From Ignavibacteriaceae bacterium (GTDB lineage Bacteria > Bacteroidota > Ignavibacteria > Ignavibacteriales > Ignavibacteriaceae): a DNA stretch of 50,841 bases. The position numbers and the translations under genes are program-made. The stretch is from assembly GCA_013360295.1 (NCBI GenBank), contig JABWCL010000032.1, forward strand, positions 1 to 50,841, read 5' to 3'. This document shows, in pieces, positions 39,935 to 50,778 of this stretch (positions are counted from its first letter, which is position 1; each line of letters starts with the position of its first letter). Under the pieces are notes generated by a model. The model made no database searches. It saw only the letters and a program-made list of their open reading frames with translations, and was not told the origin of the DNA.

Positions 39935-42724
39935 GTGAAAAACGAGAAACTGACAAGAAAGGAAATCATTGACAACCGTTTAAAACAAGCGGGATGGAAC
40001 GTGACCGACCGAACTCAGGTGATTGAAGAATTTGATATTCACTTGATGATTGTTGAAGAACCTACAACACCTTACGCCGGACACCAATACAGCGATTATG
40101 TTTTATTAGGTAAAGACGGTAAACCGCTTGCCGTTGTGGAAGCTAAAAAGACCTCAGTTGATGCCGCTCTGGGAAGGGAACAAGCCAAACAATACTGCTA
40201 TAACATCAAGCAGATTTTGGGCGTTGACTTACCATTCTGTTTTTATTCAAACGGTCATGACATTTACTTCTGGGATTTAGAAAATTATCCTCCAAAGAAA
40301 GTATTTGGTTTCCCTACCCGCGACGATCTTGAGCGCTACTCTTATATTCGCAAAGCAAGAAAGCAATTAGCGGGTGAACTCATCAACACAAAAATTGCAG
40401 GACGGGGTTATCAGATCGCATCAATACGCGCCGTGATGGAAGCACTTGAGAAGCGAAAACGAAAATTCCTATTGGTTATGGCGACCGGAACGGGTAAAAC
40501 AAGAACTTGCATTGCATTAGTTGACGCTCTAATGAGAGCGGGTTGGGCTGAGAGAGTTTTGTTTTTGGTAGACAGAATCGCCTTGCGTAACCAAACTCTG
40601 GAGGCATTCAAAGAGCATCTACCGAACGAACCACGCTGGCCGAAGCAAGGCGAAAAAGAGATTGCAACAGACAGAAGAATCTATATTTCTACTTATCCGG
40701 CAATGTTAAATATTATCCGAGACGAAGAAAAGCAATTGAGTCCGCACTTTTTTGACATTATTGTTGTGGACGAAAGCCACCGCAGCATTTACAATACATA
40801 CCAGGAGATCCTTGATTACTTCAACACTATTACACTTGGCTTAACTGCCACACCCACAGATGTTATTGACCACAATACTTTTCAATTGTTTGAATGCGAA
40901 GACGGCGTTCCGACTTTTGCCTATTCGTATGATGAAGCGGTAAACCACATTCCGCCGTTCCTGAGCAATTTTCAGGTTATGAAGATTAAAACTAAGTTTC
41001 AGGATGAAGGGATTAACCAGCGGACGATTTCTTTAGAAGATCAGCAGAAACTGATTTTAGAAGGAAAAGAAATTGACGAAATCAATTACGAAGGAACCGA
41101 GATAGAAAAGAAGGTGATCAATAGGGGAACTAATGCTTTGATCGTCCGCGAATTTATGGAGGAATGCATCAAGGATTCCAACGGTGTTTTACCCGGCAAA
41201 ACAATTTTCTTTTGTATAAGTATATCACACGCAAGACGAATTGAGGAAATATTTGATTCACTTTATCCCGAATATAAAGGAGAATTAGCCAAAGTGCTGG
41301 TAAGTGAAGATCCGCGGGTTTATGGTAAGGGTGGGCTGCTCGATCAGTTTGTTGGTAATGATCTGCCTCGCGTTGCTATTAGCGTGGATATGCTTGACAC
41401 AGGTATTGACGTTCGTGAATTAGTCAACCTGGTATTCGCAAAGCCTGTGTACAGTTACACTAAATTCTGGCAAATGATCGGCAGGGGAACCCGTTTGCTT
41501 GAACCTGAAAAAATTAAACCCTGGTGTACACAAAAAGATAATTTTCTGATTCTGGATTGCTGGGACAACTTTGAATACTTCAAACTCAATCCAAGAGGTA
41601 AAGAGTTTAAAGGTCAAATACCCTTGCCTGTCCGCTTGTTTGGTGTTCGCTTAGAAAAAATTGAAGAAGCCCTGGCACAGAACATCACTGAAATCGTGGA
41701 TAAAGAAGTTCAGAAAATAAAAGGACAGGTTGAATCGCTTCCTATAAATTCAGTGGTAATTATGGAAGCCCGAAATGAATTACAGCGGATGGAAGATGAA
41801 AATTTCTGGAACAACCTGACTGCTGATAAGTTGGAGTTTTTGGATGCCGTTGTGAAACCTTTGTTTCGTACAGTTTCAGATGTTGATTTCAAAGCGATGC
41901 GGTTTGAAAAGGATATCGTAGAAGTGTCACTGGCGCATCTGGCGGAAAAGACGGAGAAGTTTGAAATTCTGAAAGAAAGTATAATTGAAGAAATCGGCGA
42001 ACTGCCATTGAGTATTAATATTGTCGCGAGGGAACAAGAACTGATTCGACAGGCACAAAATAATCATTATTGGGCTACCATAAATGAAGATAAGTTTGAA
42101 GAGCTGATTCAGAAACTTGCACCTTTGATGAAATTCAGGGAGTCGGTGATTCCGTTGGCTCCGGCAAAGTTCAACCTTAAAGATTATGTTGCCGAAAAAG
42201 AATTAGTGGAGTTTGGCCCCCAGCACGAAGCGTTGAGCATAGCGAAATACCGTGAACTTGTAGAAAACAAAATCAATCAACTGGTTCTAAGCAGTCCGAT
42301 TTTACAAAAGCTAAAACAAGGCTTTGAGATTTCATCCGAAGAGGCTGAACAATTGGCGGAGGAACTTTACAATGAACACCCGCACATTACAGTCGACCTG
42401 CTTAGAAAGGTTTACAACCACCGGAAAGCGGCGCTGGTACAGTTCATCAAACATATTTTAGGCATTGAACAATTGGAAACCTTTGCCGTGACAGTTACAA
42501 AAGCCTTTGATGATTTTGTCGCCGGGCACAGCTACCTTGCCAGCAGGCAACTGCAATTCCTTGACCTGCTCAAGAATTTTGTATTGGAAAAGGGCGATGT
42601 GAGTAGACGTAACCTGATTGAATCCCCTTTTACGATGCTTCATCCCGAAGGCATCAGAGGTGTTTTTAATCAACGAGAGATTGACGAAATATTAATTTTA
42701 ACCGAAAAAGTATTGGCGGCTTAA
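39935..42724 (+). CDS. hsdR: type I restriction enzyme R subunit (HsdR)
   Basis: 929 residues from the GTG at 39935 (KNEKLTRKEIIDNRLKQAGW, the usual HsdR opening). An in-frame ATG at 39803 would add 44 residues with no family likeness. Domains: N-terminal PD-(D/E)xK nuclease with SDYVL and VVEAKK (about 54-70), DEAD-like translocase with MATGTGKT (about 182-189), DESH box near 279 and GLTATP, then motif V/VI region MLDTGIDV and IGRGTRL, and a C-terminal helical region binding the methylase. It cleaves DNA at a distance after ATP-driven translocation. The next gene starts on the base after the stop. Confidence 0.93.
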   Translation: MKNEKLTRKEIIDNRLKQAGWNVTDRTQVIEEFDIHLMIVEEPTTPYAGHQYSDYVLLGKDGKPLAVVEAKKTSVDAALGREQAKQYCYNIKQILGVDLPFCFYSNGHDIYFWDLENYPPKKVFGFPTRDDLERYSYIRKARKQLAGELINTKIAGRGYQIASIRAVMEALEKRKRKFLLVMATGTGKTRTCIALVDALMRAGWAERVLFLVDRIALRNQTLEAFKEHLPNEPRWPKQGEKEIATDRRIYISTYPAMLNIIRDEEKQLSPHFFDIIVVDESHRSIYNTYQEILDYFNTITLGLTATPTDVIDHNTFQLFECEDGVPTFAYSYDEAVNHIPPFLSNFQVMKIKTKFQDEGINQRTISLEDQQKLILEGKEIDEINYEGTEIEKKVINRGTNALIVREFMEECIKDSNGVLPGKTIFFCISISHARRIEEIFDSLYPEYKGELAKVLVSEDPRVYGKGGLLDQFVGNDLPRVAISVDMLDTGIDVRELVNLVFAKPVYSYTKFWQMIGRGTRLLEPEKIKPWCTQKDNFLILDCWDNFEYFKLNPRGKEFKGQIPLPVRLFGVRLEKIEEALAQNITEIVDKEVQKIKGQVESLPINSVVIMEARNELQRMEDENFWNNLTADKLEFLDAVVKPLFRTVSDVDFKAMRFEKDIVEVSLAHLAEKTEKFEILKESIIEEIGELPLSINIVAREQELIRQAQNNHYWATINEDKFEELIQKLAPLMKFRESVIPLAPAKFNLKDYVAEKELVEFGPQHEALSIAKYRELVENKINQLVLSSPILQKLKQGFEISSEEAEQLAEELYNEHPHITVDLLRKVYNHRKAALVQFIKHILGIEQLETFAVTVTKAFDDFVAGHSYLASRQLQFLDLLKNFVLEKGDVSRRNLIESPFTMLHPEGIRGVFNQREIDEILILTEKVLAA

Positions 42725-44230
42725 ATGGCAAAGAAAATACCGGAGAAGTTTGATCCTGAAAAATATATGAAAATGGCAATTGATGCCATGAATAATTCAA
42801 TCGAAGAACCAAGGACAGATGGCAAAGTTAGTCCGAAAGTGGGAGCGGTTCTGATTAAACCTGATGGAACAGTTGAATCTGCAAGCAGAGGAGAATTGCG
42901 GTATGGTGATCACGCCGAATTCACCTTATTGGAAAGAAAAAACCGTTCGGAGAAATTAGATGGCAGTATTTTGTTTGCCACACTTGAACCCTGCGCTCCC
43001 GGCGCACGACGCCACCCCAAATTGGGCTGTGCAGAAAGAATTGTTAATGCACGAATTATGGAGGTGTGGATAGGAATAGCAGACCCAGACCCCGATGTTG
43101 ACAGGAAAGGAATTAAGTATCTGGAGGATAACGGAATCAAAGTCCGGATGTTTTACCCGCAGTACCAAAAAACAATAAAAGAAGTCAATAAGGAGTTTTT
43201 ACAACAAGCTATAGAAAGAGCAAAAGATAAAAATAAAAAGGATAACGTAGTCCTTTCAAATTTTGAAAACCCGGTTCCATCTATGGACTTGAAACAATTT
43301 TCAGAGAAAGCTATTCAGTATTACATCAACCAATCAAAACTGCCTTTTGCTTTAAACTCAAAGGAATTGTGGCTTCATTTTGAACACGCGGGAATTGTTA
43401 AGCGTGAAAAACCAACAAATCAGGACGGGTATATCCCCACGGGATTTGGCATCCTCCTGTTTGGCGCCAATCCACGAGAAAAATATCAGCAAGCGGTTGT
43501 TAAAGCGAAAGTTAAATACGGAAACAATGACTCGATTCCCAAAGATTTTGAAGGCCCGCTGGTTTTGATTCCCAAAGAAATTGAATTATGGCTCGAACAA
43601 GTTTTACATTCGGAAGTCAGCCGCGAACAATTCCAACGGAAAACCAGCACACTCTTCCCCATCGCGCCTTTACGCGAAGCTATAATCAACGCCCTGGCTC
43701 ACCGTGATTATGAACAAGAAGGAGCAAAAACCTATCTTGAAATTAATGATGATAAAATTGTCGTAAAAAGCGCCGGCTTGCCTGTTTCGCCAATTTCACT
43801 TGAAGATGTTAAATCATTTAAAGCTTCTTCCTTAAGCCGAAATCCGAAAATAACTTACATTTTTAACAGAATGGGCTTAATGGAAGAATCAGAACTTGGG
43901 ATGGAAACCTTTAAGGGAATGCCGGCAAAATATAAATTACCCTTGCCATTTTACGAATACAAAGCCCCCTATTTGTCCTTAACATTTTCCAGAAGTCTTG
44001 AAGCCGTTAAATCCGTTTCAGGAATAGAAGAATTGGGTAATTTGAATGAGGATGAATTAAAAGCTTATGAGCTTTTCAGAAACAAATTATCTTTAACCAA
44101 AAGTGAGTTTGCTGAAAAATTAGGTTTACCCACCAGAACCGCAGAAAGGATGTTAAAGAAAATGGTTGATCTGAAACTTATCCTTAAAAAGGGTGCAGGT
44201 CCAAATACGAAATATGTTATTAATGCCTAA
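42725..44230 (+). CDS. RibD-like zinc deaminase fused to GHKL-type ATPase and winged helix
   Basis: 501 residues. Residues about 10-155 are a RibD/dCMP-deaminase-like domain: PKVGAVLIKPDG, His63-Ala-Glu65 as zinc ligand and catalytic Glu, then Cys90 and Cys102 in EPCAPGARRHPKLGC, and IADPDPDVDRKGIKYL. The Cys spacing (x11) is longer than in typical family members. Residues about 190-430 resemble the ATP-binding HATPase_c_4 region of Schlafen/AlbA_2-type proteins (LREAIINALAHRDYE, SSLSRNPKI). A winged helix (KSEFAEKLGLPTRTAERML) ends the protein. It is wedged between hsdR (no gap) and hsdM, so it belongs to the restriction operon. Substrate (nucleotide, DNA or RNA base) cannot be read from sequence; I know of no assigned function. 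Confidence 0.85.
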   Translation: MAKKIPEKFDPEKYMKMAIDAMNNSIEEPRTDGKVSPKVGAVLIKPDGTVESASRGELRYGDHAEFTLLERKNRSEKLDGSILFATLEPCAPGARRHPKLGCAERIVNARIMEVWIGIADPDPDVDRKGIKYLEDNGIKVRMFYPQYQKTIKEVNKEFLQQAIERAKDKNKKDNVVLSNFENPVPSMDLKQFSEKAIQYYINQSKLPFALNSKELWLHFEHAGIVKREKPTNQDGYIPTGFGILLFGANPREKYQQAVVKAKVKYGNNDSIPKDFEGPLVLIPKEIELWLEQVLHSEVSREQFQRKTSTLFPIAPLREAIINALAHRDYEQEGAKTYLEINDDKIVVKSAGLPVSPISLEDVKSFKASSLSRNPKITYIFNRMGLMEESELGMETFKGMPAKYKLPLPFYEYKAPYLSLTFSRSLEAVKSVSGIEELGNLNEDELKAYELFRNKLSLTKSEFAEKLGLPTRTAERMLKKMVDLKLILKKGAGPNTKYVINA

Positions 44231-44389
44231 GTTTCCCGCCAAATATTCGCCATACTGGCGAGATAATTCTGATTCTAACGGGAATTCCGCTGTATCTCGC
44301 CAATATCCCGCCAAACTGGCGAGATTCCCGAATCATAGCATAGACACAAGCATAGGCACTTTGTCTATGCTTAAAAATTTAAGGATAGA
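44231..44389 (+). repeat. inverted repeats between the deaminase gene and hsdM
   Basis: TGGCGAGATA (44256-44265) is the exact reverse complement of TATCTCGCCA (44293-44302), and TGGCGAGAT recurs at 44317-44325. A 10-base perfect stem AGCATAGACA / TGTCTATGCT (44337-44346, 44362-44371) ends 18 bases before hsdM. This is the only long gap in the operon apart from the one before the RT gene. Operator sites, an internal promoter or an mRNA-processing hairpin are all possible. Confidence 0.6.
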
Positions 44390-45958
44390 ATGTTACAAAA
44401 CAACGCACAATTAAAATCACTTATTGACAAGCTCTGGCAGAACTTTTGGGAGGGCGGCATAGCCAATCCCTTAACCGCCATAGAGCAAATTACCTATCTT
44501 ATTTTTATGAAACGCCTGGACGAACTGGAAGCAAAACGGGAACGTGACGCCGAATGGACCGGCGAAAAATATATTTCCCGTTTTAAGGGTAAGTTCAAAG
44601 TGCCGGGGAGCGGCGAAAGCATTGATAAAAACGAATTGCGCTGGAGTGTGTTCAAACATAAGCCCGCGGATGAAATGCTGATGCACGTGCAGATGAAAGT
44701 GTTTCCCTTTTTGAAAGATCTCAACGGAGAAACCTCCCCCTTCACCAAACACATGGCGAATGCCGTGTTCATTATGCCAAAAGCCGCTTTGCTGGTTTCC
44801 GCCATCAAAATAGTTGAAGACATTTTTAAGGAGATTGAAAAAGACGCCACCGAGGGCGGACAGGCTTTTCAGGATATACAGGGTGATGTATATGAGATGC
44901 TGTTGAGTGAAATTGCCACTTCCGGTAAAAACGGACAGTTCCGCACCCCACGGCACATTATTAAACTTATGGCTGAACTTGTTGCTCCGCAATTGGGTCA
45001 GCACATTGCCGATCCCGCCTGCGGTACAGGCGGTTTCCTTTTAGGGGCTTATCAATATATTCTCACCGATTTGGTACGGAAAAAAGACTCCGCCAGGCTG
45101 CAGAAAGATGAAGACGGTTTTGAGCGTGCAGCCATCAGCGCCGTGCTTACGCAAAAGGTAAAAAACATTCTCGACCAGAGCTTTACCGGATATGATATTG
45201 ATACTACGATGGTGCGGCTGGGACTGATGAATATGATGATGCACGGAATTGACGAACCCAAAATTGATTATAAAGACACGCTGAGTAAAAGTTATAACGA
45301 AGACAGCCGCTTCGATATTGTTATGGCTAACCCGCCGTTTACGGGCAATATTGACAAAGGCGATATTAACGAAGGGCTTAAACTTCCCACCACCAAAACC
45401 GAACTCCTTTTTGTTGAACGCATTTTTAATATGCTTAAAATGGGGGGAACGGCGGCGGTGATTGTACCGAGCGGTGTAATACAAAACAGCGGCAAGGCAT
45501 TTGAAGCGGCGCGGAAACTGATTATTGAAAAAGCCGAACTGAAAGCTGTAATAGCCGTGCCGAGCGGCGTATTCAAGCCTTATGCAGGAGTTAGCACAGC
45601 AATACTAATTTTTACCAAAGGGGGAGAAACCACTAATGTCTGGTTTTATAATATGCAAGCGGACGGCTACACATTAGACGATAAGCGAAATAAAATTGCC
45701 GAGAGCGATCTTCCCGATATTGTGCAACGCTATAAAGTCAGAGACGCGAAGAAAGATACCAACCGGAAACTGAAATACTTTATGGTGCCGAAAAAGGAAA
45801 TTGTAGAAAACAAATACGACCTGAATTTAAGTACCTACAAAGAAGAAGTTTATGAAGAAGTGGTGTATGAAAAACCGAATAAGATTTTAAAGAAGTTGTC
45901 TGATATTGAACAATCAATCAATAATGGCATTAATGAATTGACACAATTGACCAAATGA
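44390..45958 (+). CDS. hsdM: type I DNA methyltransferase subunit (HsdM)
   Basis: 522 residues. An N-terminal helical HsdM_N domain (LKSLIDKLWQNFWEGGIANPLTAIEQITYLIFMKRLDE) is followed by the N6-adenine methylase domain with SAM motif ADPACGTGGF (about 207-216) and catalytic NPPF (about 314-317). It methylates adenine in the target chosen by HsdS and protects self DNA. Its stop overlaps the hsdS start by 4 bases (ATGA). Full length, no damage seen. Confidence 0.95.
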   Translation: MLQNNAQLKSLIDKLWQNFWEGGIANPLTAIEQITYLIFMKRLDELEAKRERDAEWTGEKYISRFKGKFKVPGSGESIDKNELRWSVFKHKPADEMLMHVQMKVFPFLKDLNGETSPFTKHMANAVFIMPKAALLVSAIKIVEDIFKEIEKDATEGGQAFQDIQGDVYEMLLSEIATSGKNGQFRTPRHIIKLMAELVAPQLGQHIADPACGTGGFLLGAYQYILTDLVRKKDSARLQKDEDGFERAAISAVLTQKVKNILDQSFTGYDIDTTMVRLGLMNMMMHGIDEPKIDYKDTLSKSYNEDSRFDIVMANPPFTGNIDKGDINEGLKLPTTKTELLFVERIFNMLKMGGTAAVIVPSGVIQNSGKAFEAARKLIIEKAELKAVIAVPSGVFKPYAGVSTAILIFTKGGETTNVWFYNMQADGYTLDDKRNKIAESDLPDIVQRYKVRDAKKDTNRKLKYFMVPKKEIVENKYDLNLSTYKEEVYEEVVYEKPNKILKKLSDIEQSINNGINELTQLTK

Positions 45959-47118
45959 AGATGATGCGACTTACAGAAATTGCTCCATACTCTGGAAAGA
46001 GAGTTCAACCATTTGATGGTGCGAAGCGGTATATGTCAACCGGTGATTTGAAGGGAGATAATCTAAATTTTGAAGATGTAACTTATAAAACTAAACCATC
46101 AAGAGCAGATATACTGGTTAGCGAAGGAGATGTTTTGTTTGCTAAAATGACTAATACAAATAAGGCTTTAATTATCGATAAAGAACTTGATGGAATAATA
46201 GTTTCTACAGGATTTTCGGTTCATAGACCGATAGAGAAGCAGTTGTTTAGTGATTATTTCCTGCATTTCCTAAGACATGATAGTTTCCAAAGACAGAAAA
46301 ACAAACTGTGTACAGGAGCAATTCAATCTGCAATATCAAATAGTGGTATAGAGAAAATTCTAGTACCAATACCTCAATATTCCGAACAACTCCACATTGC
46401 CAAAATATTAAGCAAAGCCGAAAACCTGATAGCCCAGCGCAAAGAAAGCATCCGCCTGCTGGATGAATTTTTGAAAAGCACGTTTTTGGAGATGTTTGGG
46501 GATCCGGTGAGAAATGAGAAGGGGTGGGAAATTTGCAGTTTAAGCGAATTAGGGAGTTTAGATAGAGGCGTTTCAAAAGCAAGACCGAGGAACTCGCCTG
46601 ACTTATTAGGTGGAATTTATCCGCTGATACAAACAGGTGATGTTGCAAATTCGGGAGTTTACATAACCACTTATAAACAAACCTACTCTGAGTTTGGATT
46701 GAAACAGAGTAAACTATGGTCGAAAGGAACGATGTTAATTACTATTGCAGCCAATATTGGTCAAACAAGTATCCTTTCGTTTGATGCTTGTTTCCCTGAC
46801 AGTGTTGTTGGCTTAGTTACCGACAAAAAGAAATCAAGTGTCTTGTATGTGCATTTCCTATTTAAATTCTTGCAGGCATTATTGGAAAGTAAAGCCTCGC
46901 AAACTGCGCAAAAAAACATCAACTTAGAAATTCTAAGAAACTTAAGAGTCCCTTGTCCACCCCCAGAACTCCAAACACAATTCGCGGTAATCGTAGAAAA
47001 AACCGAAGCGCTAAAAATTAATTACCAAAACAGTATGCAGGAGTTGGAGAATTTGTATGCCAGTTTGAGCCAAAAGGCGTTTAGGGGGGAGTTGAGCATT
47101 AAATCAACAACGGTGTAA
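45955..47118 (+). CDS. hsdS: type I restriction specificity subunit (HsdS)
   Basis: 387 residues with the two-half layout: first target-recognition domain about 1-140, central conserved helix QLHIAKILSKAENLIAQRKESIRLLDEF, second recognition domain about 190-345 (WEICSLSELGSLDRGVSKA), and distal conserved region ELQTQFAVIVEKTEAL ending ASLSQKAFRGEL. It sets the bipartite DNA target. The first recognition domain is short at the N-terminus, but the frame starts in the hsdM stop and looks natural. The next gene starts directly after its stop. Confidence 0.92.
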   Translation: MKMMRLTEIAPYSGKRVQPFDGAKRYMSTGDLKGDNLNFEDVTYKTKPSRADILVSEGDVLFAKMTNTNKALIIDKELDGIIVSTGFSVHRPIEKQLFSDYFLHFLRHDSFQRQKNKLCTGAIQSAISNSGIEKILVPIPQYSEQLHIAKILSKAENLIAQRKESIRLLDEFLKSTFLEMFGDPVRNEKGWEICSLSELGSLDRGVSKARPRNSPDLLGGIYPLIQTGDVANSGVYITTYKQTYSEFGLKQSKLWSKGTMLITIAANIGQTSILSFDACFPDSVVGLVTDKKKSSVLYVHFLFKFLQALLESKASQTAQKNINLEILRNLRVPCPPPELQTQFAVIVEKTEALKINYQNSMQELENLYASLSQKAFRGELSIKSTTV

Positions 47119-48234
47119 ATGGAAGCTAATAATAGCCTTATATCATCCTTAAAAGCAGGTATTCTTAAAAAGAGGGTATCTTATCAAAAGAATACTTGGT
47201 CGCCTATATCAAAAGAAATGACCATCAGCGAAGTATTGCAGGAGATACATTCTGATAGCCATAAAACTCAAGTTGATAAACTTCGTGATCTTTTACGAAA
47301 CGATAAAAAAGATGAATACAATATTCACAAGAAGATTCTTCCGGCAGTAACATTTTGCGCGACATTTAACGGTGAGAGAAAAAAATCCAAAATTAAAGAT
47401 TACAACTCGTTAATTGTTTTGGACATAGACAAGATTGATGAACAAGAACTGAAGAGAATTAAAGAGTGCTTGAGCGCCGAGCCCATTGTTCTTTCATTTT
47501 GGGAGTCACCATCAAAAAATGGGCTCAAAGGCATTGTATCACTAAGCTATACTTTTGAATTAAATACCGATAACATAGACAGTGTCCATAAAGCCGCTTT
47601 TCAAAAACTCGCTTGCTATTTTAAAGAAAAACATAATATTGTATTAGACAATAGTGGAAGCGACACAACACGACTATGTTTCTTTTCGTATGACCCATTT
47701 ATTATTATAAAAGAAGAAGTTGTTCAGTATGAAATAACCGAATCAGATGTTTCGTCAATATCAGTAAGTGAAGAAACACCTAAAACCACAAATCTTATTT
47801 TTGCCAGCAACAGGGACGCATTATATAATCCCCACAAAAGAAATGCACCCGGCGACAGACACACCATTTCTGCGATTATCAGATATTTGAAGAAAAACAA
47901 ACTTTCAATCACCCATTCATATGAAGAGTGGTATAAAGTTGCTATGGCGATAGCGAACTCATTTACTTATGACATTGGAGAGAAATATTTTCTTTACCTT
48001 AGTTCATTAGATACAGCAAAATATAATGAGGTGGAGTGTAAAAACTTTTTAGTCAACTGCTACGAAACCAGAAGTGGGGCGATAAAATTTAAAACAATTG
48101 TATATTTTGCAACTCAAAAAGGTTATATAATAAAAAACCAGAGGGATAAGGGTTCTGAGGCGGTAGATGAAAATTTATCGCATGTTTCATCCTCAAAGAC
48201 GGTTATTCACTTGCCAGAGGACATAAAAGAGTGA
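47119..48234 (+). CDS. VirE N-terminal/BT4734-like protein with PriCT-2-like domain
   Basis: 371 residues beginning on the base after the hsdS stop. Residues about 70-205 match the BT4734/VirE_N domain: LPAVTFCATFNGERKKSKI, YNSLIVLDIDK (about 96-106), SPSKNGLKGIV, and DNSGSDTTRLCFFSYDP. Residues about 245-345 look like the PriCT-2 primase C-terminal domain (EEWYKVAMAIANSF, IKFKTIVYFATQKGY). Such domains usually precede a D5 or VirE helicase in mobile-element replication proteins; here the helicase is absent and a reverse transcriptase follows 82 bases later. A nucleic-acid priming or binding role with the RT is inferred, not shown. Confidence 0.8.
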   Translation: MEANNSLISSLKAGILKKRVSYQKNTWSPISKEMTISEVLQEIHSDSHKTQVDKLRDLLRNDKKDEYNIHKKILPAVTFCATFNGERKKSKIKDYNSLIVLDIDKIDEQELKRIKECLSAEPIVLSFWESPSKNGLKGIVSLSYTFELNTDNIDSVHKAAFQKLACYFKEKHNIVLDNSGSDTTRLCFFSYDPFIIIKEEVVQYEITESDVSSISVSEETPKTTNLIFASNRDALYNPHKRNAPGDRHTISAIIRYLKKNKLSITHSYEEWYKVAMAIANSFTYDIGEKYFLYLSSLDTAKYNEVECKNFLVNCYETRSGAIKFKTIVYFATQKGYIIKNQRDKGSEAVDENLSHVSSSKTVIHLPEDIKE

Positions 48235-48316
48235 AGCGACATATGTCAGTATCTTTGTCAGAATGTGGCTAAATGCCAATAACTGGAACCCTTTCCCTTT
48301 GTTTATTCTTTGAGCA

Positions 48317-50179
48317 ATGAAAGATTTTGAAACATACTTTTCCAGCGATGCTATCATTACATATTTATGTAGACTAAGGGCAAAAGTTGCGAATAATCGG
48401 AACAAAAAGCATCTGATTCATTTACTTACGAATTCGGATAAGTATAATTATCATGTAAGAGATTCGGTAAAACATTTGACTATTGAGATTATAAATGAAA
48501 ACGGGTATGCGAAATATGAAAGGGAGTTTCTGAACCAGTTACGTACTCTCTTGCCACCAAGAAAAAAATGGGTAAATCTTGGCGGCAATTCCCGAATTAA
48601 TAAGAGTACGAAACAACTGATATCTTCCAGCAAGAGAAATGAATATTCAATTATTAAAACAATAAAATCCTTCCGGAAGAAGTCTCCTGGCGAACCTTGG
48701 CTATTGGCTCTAGATGATTTTATAAAAGACATTAAGCAATCCGTAGCATCCGGTGAATATAAATTAACAGCGCCTACAATCTATCCAAAGCTAAAGAAGG
48801 AAAAGCAATTTAAGGGAGAAAATGACTGCCGCCCAATCTGCTTGTTCAATTTGAAAGACCGCATCATACTGAGTATTACAAACAAATACCTAACAAGGTT
48901 ATTTGACCCCCTTTTTGAAAGTTGTTCTTTTGCGTTTAGATCTAAGAAAAACAAAGCTGAAACGGCTATTCTTAATCATCATGATTGCATAAAAGAAATC
49001 CTGGAATACCGACAAAAGCATTTGAACAAGCCTTTGTGGGTTGCTGAATGTGATATAGAAAAGTTTTATGACACCGTGAATCATAAAATCGCTAAGGTGC
49101 TATATGATGAATTAATTCTCAAATGTAGAGATACATTTAAGAATTTGGACTTCAGTAAGCCGTCACATATATTTAATCAGTATCTTGAATGTTATTCATT
49201 CAATAAAAACGTTCTCTTATCAGAGAGCCCAGAATATTGGAAAAGCTATGATATTCCCAATGGACACTTCCCCTGGGTTTTAAAAGATTTTATTGAGCTT
49301 GACTATTACAATAATATCGCTAACGAAAGAATTGGCGTTCCTCAGGGAGGAGCTCTATCCGGCCTTATTGCCAATATAATGCTCAATGTTGCAGATAAAG
49401 TTGTATTGCAATCGGGGGCATTCTACATTAGATTTTGTGATGACATGATAATATTGCATCCGGAAAAAACAACATGTGAGGTTGCAAAGGACCTTTATGT
49501 TAATACTTTGAAGGGCTTAAAGTTAGTGCCACATAAATTTAAAAGTGATTCTGAACTTGTTGAGAAAAGGGAGAATAAGTGTAAAGAAAGAAGAAAATTG
49601 GGAGAATACTCCTATGAGGCATTCTGGAATGGAAAATCGAAAGGCCCGTTCAAATGGGCATCCATTAAAGATGAAGGTTTTCCGTGGGTGGGATTTGTGG
49701 GATATGAAATACATCATGAGGGGCATATTAGAGTGCGAAAAAAATCATTTCTTAAGGAGCTAAAGAAACAAAATGATGTCGTGAGCGATATTAAAAAAGC
49801 GGTGGAGTATGGTCGGAGAAAAAGTGAACGCTCGGTAACTGAATCCGCTATTCACAGACTTGTTGGAATGTCGGTTGGTCGTGTTAGCTTAAGGAACTAT
49901 AAAACCGTGTCAAATGATTTGTGTTGGAAAAATGGATTTAAGGAATTGAAACCCAATAAATATTCTGTTCAGCAAATAAAACATTTAGACAGAAATAGAA
50001 ATAAACTTTACTACGATCTTATAAGAGATTTAAAAAAATCCAAAAAAGAAGAAAATAACATCGTTGAATCAAAACCAAGACAAATAATTGACTTCAATAA
50101 ACCGTTTAGTTATTACTATCAGATTATTGTGAGAGCAAAAGATGATGAAAATGACGGTAGCAATAGCACTGTGGAATGA
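48317..50179 (+). CDS. reverse transcriptase (non-LTR/defence-type)
   Basis: 620 residues. RT motifs: NDCRPICLFNLKDRI (fingers), ECDIEKFYDTVNH with catalytic Asp246, IGVPQGGALSGLIANIML (about 340-357), and YIRFCDDMIILHP with Asp375-Asp376 in an FCDD box in place of the common YADD. Between the Asp246 motif and PQGG lies an unusually long insert (about 95 residues). After the palm comes VGFVGYEIHHEGHIRVRKKS and a basic helical C-terminus. No maturase or HNH domain is evident, and I see no group II intron RNA. Best reading: an RT of the unassigned/Abi/DRT-like group acting with the upstream primase-like protein; which class is not decidable here. Confidence 0.85.
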   Translation: MKDFETYFSSDAIITYLCRLRAKVANNRNKKHLIHLLTNSDKYNYHVRDSVKHLTIEIINENGYAKYEREFLNQLRTLLPPRKKWVNLGGNSRINKSTKQLISSSKRNEYSIIKTIKSFRKKSPGEPWLLALDDFIKDIKQSVASGEYKLTAPTIYPKLKKEKQFKGENDCRPICLFNLKDRIILSITNKYLTRLFDPLFESCSFAFRSKKNKAETAILNHHDCIKEILEYRQKHLNKPLWVAECDIEKFYDTVNHKIAKVLYDELILKCRDTFKNLDFSKPSHIFNQYLECYSFNKNVLLSESPEYWKSYDIPNGHFPWVLKDFIELDYYNNIANERIGVPQGGALSGLIANIMLNVADKVVLQSGAFYIRFCDDMIILHPEKTTCEVAKDLYVNTLKGLKLVPHKFKSDSELVEKRENKCKERRKLGEYSYEAFWNGKSKGPFKWASIKDEGFPWVGFVGYEIHHEGHIRVRKKSFLKELKKQNDVVSDIKKAVEYGRRKSERSVTESAIHRLVGMSVGRVSLRNYKTVSNDLCWKNGFKELKPNKYSVQQIKHLDRNRNKLYYDLIRDLKKSKKEENNIVESKPRQIIDFNKPFSYYYQIIVRAKDDENDGSNSTVE

Positions 50180-50778
50180 AACTTATCCAACTTAGCAAGC
50201 CCACTTAACTCGATAGAACAAATCTACTTCGATGAGGAATAATTATTTATAATGGCTAATCGTTGGGGCGTAACGCCAATTGTTGAAGATAGGGATATAC
50301 AAGTTTTTGTATCCTGAGATTCGCGGAGTCGGAAGGTTTATTAAGATAGGACTGCCGGCGCCGGAAAATACTCACCGGATAACTACCTTGGCGAGCGTAA
50401 GGCAAAGCAGAAATAAAACCACCCCGCCGCAGGAAAATACCTGTCCCCCCGGGGGATCCTGCGTTACATAAAAACTTTGATCATTGATCATTGGTATTTG
50501 ATCATTGCCCCTGGTCTCTGTTCTCTGATCCCTGCCCAAAACCGTCGCAGGAAAATACCTGTCCCCCCGGGGATCCTGCGTTACATAAGGCTCTGATCAT
50601 TGATCATTGGTATTTGATCATTGCCCCTGTTCCTTGCCCAAAACCGCAGTAAGCAATTGTTAATAGAAAGCGGATTTCCTATTTTAGCGGTGTAATTATT
50701 GAAAATCCGCCGGAGGCAGAAGGTTGTTTCCGTTCCGGTTCGCGGCCAGAGTACACAAACTAAGAAAAGGTTTATTGT
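50180..50778. other. noncoding, structured and repeat-rich stretch downstream of the RT
   Basis: About 600 bases. 50264-50350 contains several short hairpins, including GGATATACAAG / TTTTTGTATCC. At 50428-50646 a unit of about 100-118 bases is tandemly repeated (annotated separately). No ORF longer than about 60 codons looks real. A noncoding RNA partner of the RT or a dispersed repeat are both possible. Confidence 0.5.
50428..50646 (+). repeat. two tandem copies of a structured repeat
   Basis: Copy 1 runs 50428-50544 and copy 2 50546-50646. Both start CGCAGGAAAATACCTG, pass through a C-run/G-run palindrome, close with GATCCTGCG (inverted match to CGCAGGA), continue with TTACATAA, then three TGATCATTG units, and end CCCAAAACCG. 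The copies are nearly identical apart from an extra 15-20 bases in copy 1. Confidence 0.85.

What the first reader, a model, noticed from the sequence alone, without database searches (positions are those of the whole stretch)
39935..50179. Possible undescribed composite defence operon: HsdR - deaminase/ATPase - HsdM - HsdS - primase-like - reverse transcriptase
Seen: six same-strand genes with coupled joints (0, ATGA, 0 and 82 base spacings; one 159-base gap with inverted repeats). A complete type I restriction system has two additions that are not part of the normal system: a RibD-like deaminase fused to a GHKL-like ATPase between R and M, and a VirE_N/PriCT-2 protein plus an RT after S. Known: RTs, nucleotide deaminases and restriction systems each act in anti-phage defence. 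Inference: the additions form one layered system, for example restriction with deaminase or RT backup triggered when restriction fails.
Basis: partly seen in the sequence, partly recalled or inferred. Interest (0 to 1): 0.85.

Follow-up and report, generated by a model that had tools for sequence, protein, structure and literature searches.

The report
Two adjacent defence modules, new RNA
What looked like one six-gene bacterial antiviral operon is most likely two neighbouring systems: a DNA-cutting system carrying an extra deaminase enzyme with its own swappable DNA-binding tail and matching repeat sites, and a separate primase and reverse transcriptase pair with a structured RNA hidden between its two genes.

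Summary
The six genes are as described, but relatives split them into two units. (A) hsdR–deaminase–hsdM–hsdS also occurs in a second species of the genus, without primase/RT. The deaminase protein is a RibD-fold deaminase on the GHKL–winged-helix body that carries Schlafen RNases in reported backup effectors. The 159-nt gap after it holds a repeat array that follows most such genes: strict 31-nt units downstream in 19 of 25 loci, upstream in 1 of 25. Winged helix and array letters are exchanged together: this protein is 84% identical to its sister over residues 1–437 but 25% over 438–501, and the proximal array units differ too. (B) The VirE_N/PriCT-2 primase-polymerase plus RT is a known candidate pair (PADLOC RTasVirE-PriCT2, RT_UG39); no hsd gene was found beside it in 7 other loci. 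A structured RNA lies at the gene junction (48142–48297): in four sequences 97% of cells pair and 10 pairs change on both sides. A model built from three found the fourth blindly, beside a primase gene and what looks like a cut RT start. A single layered system is not supported. Functions are inferred; nothing was tested at the bench.

The parts
39935..42724 (+). hsdR, type I restriction subunit (HSDR_N, ResIII, EcoEI_R_C)
42725..44230 (+). Deaminase-GHKL-wHTH protein: RibD-fold deaminase (about residues 8-165), middle domain and HATPase_c_4 (about 240-421), winged helix (about 438-501). H63-A-E65, P89-C90 and C102 (zinc site) and E318/N322 (GHKL N-box region) invariant in 23 of 23
   Evidence: motif roles recalled
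44234..44369 (+). Three-unit repeat array after the deaminase gene: 44234-44263 and 44295-44324 (TCTCGCCA type, 61 nt apart), 44339-44369 (CATAGACA type). Each unit: two direct copies of an 8-nt half-site, then its reverse complement; the copies are inexact
44390..45958 (+). hsdM, N6-adenine methyltransferase subunit
45955..47118 (+). hsdS, specificity subunit
47119..48234 (+). VirE_N (BT4734-like) / PriCT-2 primase-polymerase, PADLOC RTasVirE-PriCT2 E 6.6e-129; D102-x-D104, S-P-S-x-x-G-x-K137, D177, D182, R185 invariant in 6 of 6
48142..48297 (+). Candidate structured ncRNA across the VirE 3' end and the VirE-RT gap: closing stem AAGGGTTCTG/TGGAACCCTT plus internal hairpins
   Evidence: blind hit
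48317..50179 (+). Reverse transcriptase, PADLOC RT_UG39 E 3.1e-202; catalytic D246 and C374-D375-D376 conserved in 7 of 7

Best explanation
The locus is two independent antiviral modules placed end to end. Module A (39935-47118) is a type I restriction-modification operon with a built-in accessory gene. Shown: the accessory protein joins a RibD-fold deaminase with intact zinc-site residues to a GHKL ATPase and a winged helix; its gene is followed by an array of 30-31-nt sites, as in most relatives; the winged helix and the letters of the array are exchanged together between distantly related copies. Inferred: the winged helix binds the array DNA, which holds or counts the protein at its own gene, and a disturbance (anti-restriction attack, loss of Hsd function, foreign DNA) makes the ATPase part release the deaminase onto nucleotides or nucleic acid as a suicidal backup, as proposed for Schlafen-ATPase-wHTH proteins beside BREX and as reported for PrrC beside its type I enzyme. 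Module B (47119-50179) is a UG39 defence-associated reverse transcriptase system. Shown: a primase-polymerase gene, a structured RNA at the junction and an RT lie together. Inferred: the RNA binds the RT as template or scaffold, as in DRT2 and DRT9, the primase-polymerase primes or copies the cDNA, and the product blocks phage. The two modules may share a transcript here because hsdS and VirE abut, but they do not need each other.
For: Separability: G687 has R-deaminase-M-S (85.6/78.1/86.5/83.2% identity; hsdR cut by the contig end) without VirE/RT; 0 of 7 other VirE-type loci have hsd by tblastn; both additions together only in G000 (and 36/67). Array: strict unit downstream in 19 of 25 deaminase loci, upstream in 1 of 25, none inside 37.5 kb of deaminase gene; shuffles 0.125 loci on average, at most 1. 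Co-exchange: window vs G687 84% over residues 1-437 and 25% over 438-501; L016 vs L049 40% and 87% with the same half-site; label permutation 0 of 5000. Not riboflavin synthesis: the genome has a full RibD at G000:C12. ncRNA: 9 double-change pairs of 37 in three sequences, 0 of 500 shuffles, slid controls 0-1 (the structure was derived from these sequences); four sequences 10 pairs, slid controls 0-3; blind hit E 3e-19 among 97 genomes, which lies beside a VirE gene and what by eye is the start of an RT. RT model: first Foldseek row DRT9, DRT2 also listed.
Against: No functional data. About half of the 28 deaminase genomes show no restriction genes near it, so coupling to Hsd is not general. 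hsdS and VirE abut with 0 nt and all six genes run the same way, which allows co-expression. The array lies 3' of the gene in most cases, an odd place for a simple operator, and RNA folding of the array in four loci also gives low energies (z -2.2 to -6.2), so an RNA role is not excluded. L043 and L045 showed no unit near the gene and L033 has the TCGCGACA half-site with a rather different helix. The ncRNA model gave no significant match in L027, L028, L050 and L065. In the folding scan L027 and L028 had lower windows elsewhere, and L065 and L028 were weak before the RT (z -0.9 and -1.8).
Confidence: 0.6

Rival explanations
1. One composite system: restriction first, deaminase and RT as backups that depend on the Hsd complex.
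For: Same strand, 0-nt joints; a more distant UG39 RT (L095, OLD-type partner, no VirE found) lies inside an hsdM-hsdS...hsdR locus with a GmrSD gene, so RTs of this clade do enter hsd loci.
Against: G687 lacks the RT pair; 7 VirE-type loci without hsd found; the additions do not co-occur elsewhere in the two samples.
Confidence: 0.08
2. The deaminase protein is mainly a transcription regulator: its winged helix binds the array between deaminase and hsdM to time methylase against endonuclease expression, and the deaminase domain senses a nucleotide ligand.
For: Array lies just before hsdM here and in G687; winged helix and array co-vary; units are mostly 61-63 nt apart, near six DNA turns.
Against: The array follows the gene also where no restriction gene lies downstream (for example L030, L034, L035); zinc-site residues are invariant in 23 of 23, which speaks for catalysis.
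Confidence: 0.22
3. The 3' array acts as RNA: a repeat RNA that restrains the deaminase, like the AvcI RNA of the AvcID toxin-antitoxin system.
For: Outer half-sites stay complementary while their letters change; arrays of four loci fold better than shuffles; AvcD is a deaminase with an RNA antitoxin (PMC10511110, abstract in listing).
Against: The middle half-site repeats the first rather than pairing with it; letters track the DNA-binding-type winged helix; L036 has the array upstream of the gene.
Confidence: 0.15
4. The VirE-RT junction structure is only an mRNA feature (translation control or coding constraint), not a functional ncRNA.
For: It overlaps the VirE 3' end in the window, L097 and L100; Rfam has no match.
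Against: The VirE frame ends at four different places while nucleotides and pairs are kept; in L026 VirE stops about where the structure starts.
Confidence: 0.15

Closest known systems
PADLOC RT_UG39 with RTasVirE-PriCT2; UG28b RTs of Sharifi and Ye 2021
   Same: Both genes match the PADLOC models very strongly; [quoted passage not shown]
   Different: That UG28b equals UG39 is my guess. The main text of that paper has 0 occurrences of 'ncRNA'; here a covarying RNA is found at the junction.
DRT9 and DRT2 systems
   Same: RT model matches DRT9 (Foldseek 1.5e-12) and DRT2 (3.9e-10); both are solved with an RT-bound ncRNA by their PDB titles.
   Different: A VirE_N/PriCT-2 gene accompanies this RT; no endless reading frame shared by all four RNAs was found within the bounds tested, so a DRT2-type encoded effector is not indicated.
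Schlafen RNase - minimal histidine kinase - wHTH backup effectors of BREX and related systems
   Same: GHKL body (model matches 3lmm, Z 21.7, 231 residues, rmsd 3.0) and winged helix, also recruited beside restriction-type systems (PMC12839542, passages). That 3lmm is of the Schlafen-type architecture is recalled.
   Different: The N-terminal enzyme is a deaminase, not a Schlafen RNase; a 3' array goes with it (of 6 GHKL relatives without deaminase match that I examined, one had a similar unit, upstream).
PrrC anticodon nuclease with its type I system
   Same: A toxic enzyme silenced by a linked type I enzyme and activated by a phage anti-restriction factor (PMC2610378, abstract in listing): the model for a backup effector in an hsd operon.
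   Different: No sequence relation is claimed; control of the deaminase by Hsd is untested.
RibD
   Same: Deaminase domain fold (2b3z: Z 20.6, 142 residues, 2.0 A).
   Different: No reductase domain match; three more residues between the zinc cysteines in the alignment; the genome has its own RibD.

Membership tests
Type I restriction-modification | R, M and S subunits encoded together | tested here: met
Type I restriction-modification | Methylation-dependent restriction activity | not testable with these tools
   needs the bench
UG39 defence-associated RT (PADLOC DRT) | RT matches the UG39 model and keeps catalytic aspartates | tested here: met
   RT_UG39 3.1e-202; D246, D375, D376 in 7 of 7
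UG39 defence-associated RT (PADLOC DRT) | VirE-PriCT2 partner gene | tested here: met
   6.6e-129. Of 8 other loci found through the RT, 6 have a VirE gene beside it (L026, L027, L028, L050, L065, L097) and 2 gave no tblastn match (L066, L095); the locus found through the RNA, L100, has one
UG39 defence-associated RT (PADLOC DRT) | Anti-phage activity | not testable with these tools
   needs phage plating
ncRNA-dependent (Class 2) DRT | Structured RNA next to the RT | tested here: met
   blind hit. Class 2 as described in PMC12632851 (passages)
ncRNA-dependent (Class 2) DRT | RT uses the RNA as template | not testable with these tools
   needs cDNA sequencing
Archaeo-eukaryotic primase, BT4734-like family | Motif I hhhDhD/E and motif III acidic residue | tested here: met
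   D102-x-D104, D177/D182 in 6 of 6; motifs from a passage of PMC5862659; which aspartate is motif III, and the motif II assignment, are mine
Backup effector on a GHKL-wHTH body | GHKL and winged-helix domains C-terminal to an enzyme, near restriction-type genes | tested here: met
   near such genes in 15 of 28 genomes
Backup effector on a GHKL-wHTH body | Schlafen RNase domain at the N terminus | tested here: not met
   RibD-fold deaminase instead
RibD riboflavin enzyme | Deaminase plus reductase domain, match above the curated cut-off | tested here: not met
   60 bits against a cut-off of 156
Type III toxin-antitoxin (AvcID-like) | Repeat RNA that inhibits the adjacent deaminase | tested here: inconclusive
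   array present and foldable but letters track the winged helix

The most novel reading that the evidence does not exclude
The deaminase gene carries an exchangeable address: a winged-helix domain and the matching 3' site array travel as one cassette, much as specificity domains of hsdS are swapped. The enzyme would be parked on its own array and fired when array occupancy changes, for example when phage DNA replication or a phage factor pulls it off. This would be a new way of arming a defence enzyme, usable alone or inside restriction operons. Beside it, the UG39 system pairs a primase-polymerase with an RNA-guided RT.
Probability: 0.25. Interest if true: 0.87.

Novelty: new variant of a known kind. 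Interest (0 to 1): 0.72.

Why it matters
It corrects a tempting reading (one six-gene system) and gives two directly testable predictions. First, a specific 156-nt RNA for a reverse transcriptase group for which my searches found no described RNA, together with a primase-polymerase partner that could supply primer or second strand. Second, a domain-and-site cassette: the C-terminal winged helix of a deaminase and its repeat array are swapped together between proteins that are otherwise about 40% identical, which predicts its DNA target from comparison alone and suggests how a potentially lethal enzyme is kept at its own gene.

Tried and rejected
Viral contigs: the deaminase gave no relative, the RT alone none, the RT alignment 8 weak RTs at 22-27% identity, the winged-helix tail none. 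Phages: no RT match. Plasmids: one RT pair, its RT in two reading frames (L050); deaminase only partial matches; winged-helix tail none. First idea that the gap repeats are just an hsdM operator: weakened when the same element turned up after solo deaminase genes. A first gap pattern elsewhere in the genome: 5 matches with 3 mismatches, control 1; the pattern was badly spaced and did not match the window itself. DRT2-like endless reading frame in the ncRNA: none in all four, for starts in the first 80 columns and lengths of 70 columns or more. Promoter scan: 29 found, 28.8 expected; terminators 18 against 10.6; not used. A looser array definition is noise: 23 of 25 downstream but also 11 of 25 upstream and 23 of 25 inside genes. 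The generic unit scan gave 44 matches within 450 nt after deaminase genes (some on the other strand or chance) and 64 elsewhere in 688 kb, most of these N runs or AT-rich, a few real-looking (L036 upstream, L041 = L017, L048, L032). Folding with hand-cut ends gave mixed z-scores: window -2.6 and -1.8, L026 -0.9 and -2.6, L097 -6.7, L027, L028 and L050 near 0, against -0.8 to -4.8 for the 190 nt before each annotated RT start (nine loci, three starts set too early). The remote loci L066/L095 show a conserved stretch before the RT, not followed further.

Rows dropped before counts: of the deaminase loci, L029, L041 (same contig as L017) and L047 were not given to the hsdS count (28 genomes); the tree and A2 hold 23 sequences (L015, L029, L041, L043, L045-L048, L063, L064 left out); the array count uses 25 loci (A2 plus L029 and L063). 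Of those left out of it, L048 showed a unit just after the gene, L043, L045 and L064 none, L046 and L047 end in the gene. L018/L019, L020/L061 and L042/L049 are close and were kept. The permutation used 20 loci with a proximal unit (L062's is degenerate). The weak RT match G033 was dropped. Half-site labels were assigned by eye; some neighbour genes (DprA-like, RarA-like) were named by eye.
Full report
Observation.

Two units, not one. In the 296-genome phylum sample (own genome included) the deaminase protein was found in 7 genomes, one of them only over the ATPase half, and RT_UG39 in 5, one weak; only the own genome is in both lists. In the 164-genome order sample the deaminase was found in 7, one of them partial, RT_UG39 in 2; again only the own genome is in both. 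Two further samples gave RT_UG39 in 4 of 395 and 2 of 397 genomes (they overlap with the others). A second species of the same genus, G687, holds hsdR-deaminase-hsdM-hsdS at 78-87% protein identity, with no VirE or RT after hsdS and other genes there; its hsdR is cut by the contig end, and the window's left-flank transporter lies on another contig of G687, followed by other genes. The primase/RT pair lies without detectable hsd genes in 7 of 7 other VirE-type loci (L026, L027, L028, L050, L065, L097, L100; 6-22 kb each, some cut by contig ends). A more distant UG39 RT without a VirE match, L095, does lie inside an hsd locus with OLD-like and GmrSD genes, so such RTs can enter hsd loci.

The deaminase protein. 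AlphaFold model: mean pLDDT 86. Residues 10-165 match RibD (2b3z, Z 20.6, 2.0 A over 142 residues), residues 118-450 match 3lmm (Z 21.7, 3.0 A over 231). H63, E65, C90 and C102 and, in the GHKL part, E318 and N322 are invariant in 23 of 23. The genome has a separate full-length RibD, so this is not the riboflavin enzyme. hsdS lies within about 7 kb in 10 of 28 genomes (matched by hand: window, G687, G056, G217, G098, L031, L032, L033, L046, L048; 0.56 expected, P about 2e-11 if genomes were independent, which they are not fully); five more have another restriction-type gene or a piece of one beside it (L016, L037, L038, L061, L063). On the tree of 23 proteins the hsd-linked label needs at least 5 changes, with 27 of 500 shuffles as low: repeated recruitment or loss. 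Other loci are solo, for example inside a cell-wall gene cluster (L044) or a polysaccharide cluster (L030) (genes named by eye). The same kind of body with a Schlafen RNase in place of the deaminase is described as a backup effector of BREX and related systems (PMC12839542, passages). In six loci a DprA-like gene follows (L016, L037, L038, L042, L049, L063; by eye; Pfam 2e-6, just below cut-off, for L016, the only one searched).

The array. Right after the deaminase stop codon most loci carry one to four units of the form half-site, 4 nt, half-site, 3 nt, reverse-complemented half-site, mostly 61-63 nt apart. With that strict form 19 of 25 loci have a unit in 300 nt downstream, 1 of 25 upstream (L036), none within 37.5 kb of the genes; shuffled downstream sequences give 0.125 loci on average, at most 1. 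Without a strict unit downstream: L020 and L061 (one spacer longer), L029 and L040 (degenerate, by eye), L036 (upstream), L044 (unclear). The window's units have spacers 3+3, 3+3 and 4+3. Half-site letters differ among loci (CATAGACA, TCTCGCCA, CTTGGACA, TCGCGACA, TTCCGGCA and others), and distant loci share types.

Winged helix and array move together. Aligning the C-terminal residues beside the half-site type shows that proteins of different clades with one half-site type mostly share one winged-helix type. Pairs under 60% identical over residues 1-437: 13 pairs with the same half-site have mean C-terminal identity 61.6% (mean N 46.0%); 163 pairs with different half-sites 32.9% (mean N 43.0%); no permutation of 5000 reached the observed difference (relatedness is only partly controlled). 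L033 is an exception: TCGCGACA with a rather different helix. In the window itself residues 1-437 are 84% identical to G687 but 438-501 only 25%; G687's strict unit is of the CATAGACA type, the window's two proximal units are TCTCGCCA and only its distal one is CATAGACA. I read this as a domain-plus-array swap that left one old unit behind. That the helix binds the array is inference. An RNA role is not excluded.

The RNA of module B. DNA similarity to L026 runs through the VirE 3' end into the VirE-RT gap although the VirE frame ends earlier there. A scan of folding z-scores across VirE and RT puts the minimum at the junction in window (-5.2), L097 (-5.8), L026 (-4.0) and L050 (-2.7), not in L027 and L028 (six loci scanned). 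Three aligned sequences: 37 pairs, 97.3% of cells paired, 9 pairs changed on both sides, 0 of 500 shuffles as high, slid controls 36-52% and 0-1 (the structure comes from these sequences, which favours it). A covariance model from these three, searched over 97 genomes, hit the own locus and one more, G644, E 3.3e-19. That contig holds a VirE gene (54.7% identity) that overlaps the RNA's start and, after the RNA, a reading frame that by eye begins like the RT, cut by the contig end; the RT search had not reported this genome. With it: 97.2% paired, 10 pairs changed on both sides, slid controls 0-3 (this alignment is fitted to the model). In 20 sources the model found no significant match beyond its three founders. 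Rfam: no match. The primase-polymerase motifs are intact in 6 of 6; VirE_N domains are ascribed to primase-polymerases in CRISPR loci (PMC8211822, passages). The RT model's first Foldseek row is DRT9 at 1.5e-12, group II intron RTs and DRT2 close behind; by VIA-align 2 DGR, G2L4, group II and DRT9 RTs lead (Z 20.9-19.4), with mean pLDDT only 71.

Prior work. VirE_N with a UG RT class is published (PMC8934634, passages) and modelled in PADLOC. I found no paper on an RNA for it, nor on a deaminase-GHKL-wHTH protein, in searches; two likely key papers (Mestre 2022, Iyer 2011; recalled) are not held, so earlier mention is possible.

What is shown and what is inferred. Shown: gene content, separability, array and its co-exchange with the winged helix, a covarying RNA with a blind hit. 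Inferred: binding, backup-effector role, templating, priming, phage defence.

Noticed in passing
L095:1526-14362: A second arrangement of the UG39 RT clade: hsdM-hsdS-OLD ATPase-RT-PDDEXK-like-GmrSD-hsdR in one direction; L066 has an ATPase, the RT and by eye a similar next gene. A conserved stretch precedes the RT in both.
   Followed up: partly
L016:10737-11222; also L037, L038, L042, L049, L063: A small DprA-like gene follows the deaminase gene and array in six loci (named by eye; Pfam only for L016, below cut-off), a possible partner.
   Followed up: partly
L064:9070-10656: A 528-aa protein with a deaminase N-terminus but no recognised C-terminal Pfam domain: another deaminase architecture.
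   Followed up: no
L101:2333-2363: A GHKL relative on a Chloroflexota plasmid, matched only over the ATPase part, has a similar 31-nt unit about 25 nt before its gene, on the other strand.
   Followed up: no
window 50424-50516 and 50542-50632: Two copies of a 93-nt sequence, 92% identical, in the non-coding stretch after the RT.
   Followed up: no
window 16265-39291: Sugar-use cluster left of the locus: GH94, TonB-dependent receptor, GH35/42-like and glycoamylase-like proteins, then by eye a sugar ABC transporter, also found in relatives where other genes follow it.
   Followed up: partly
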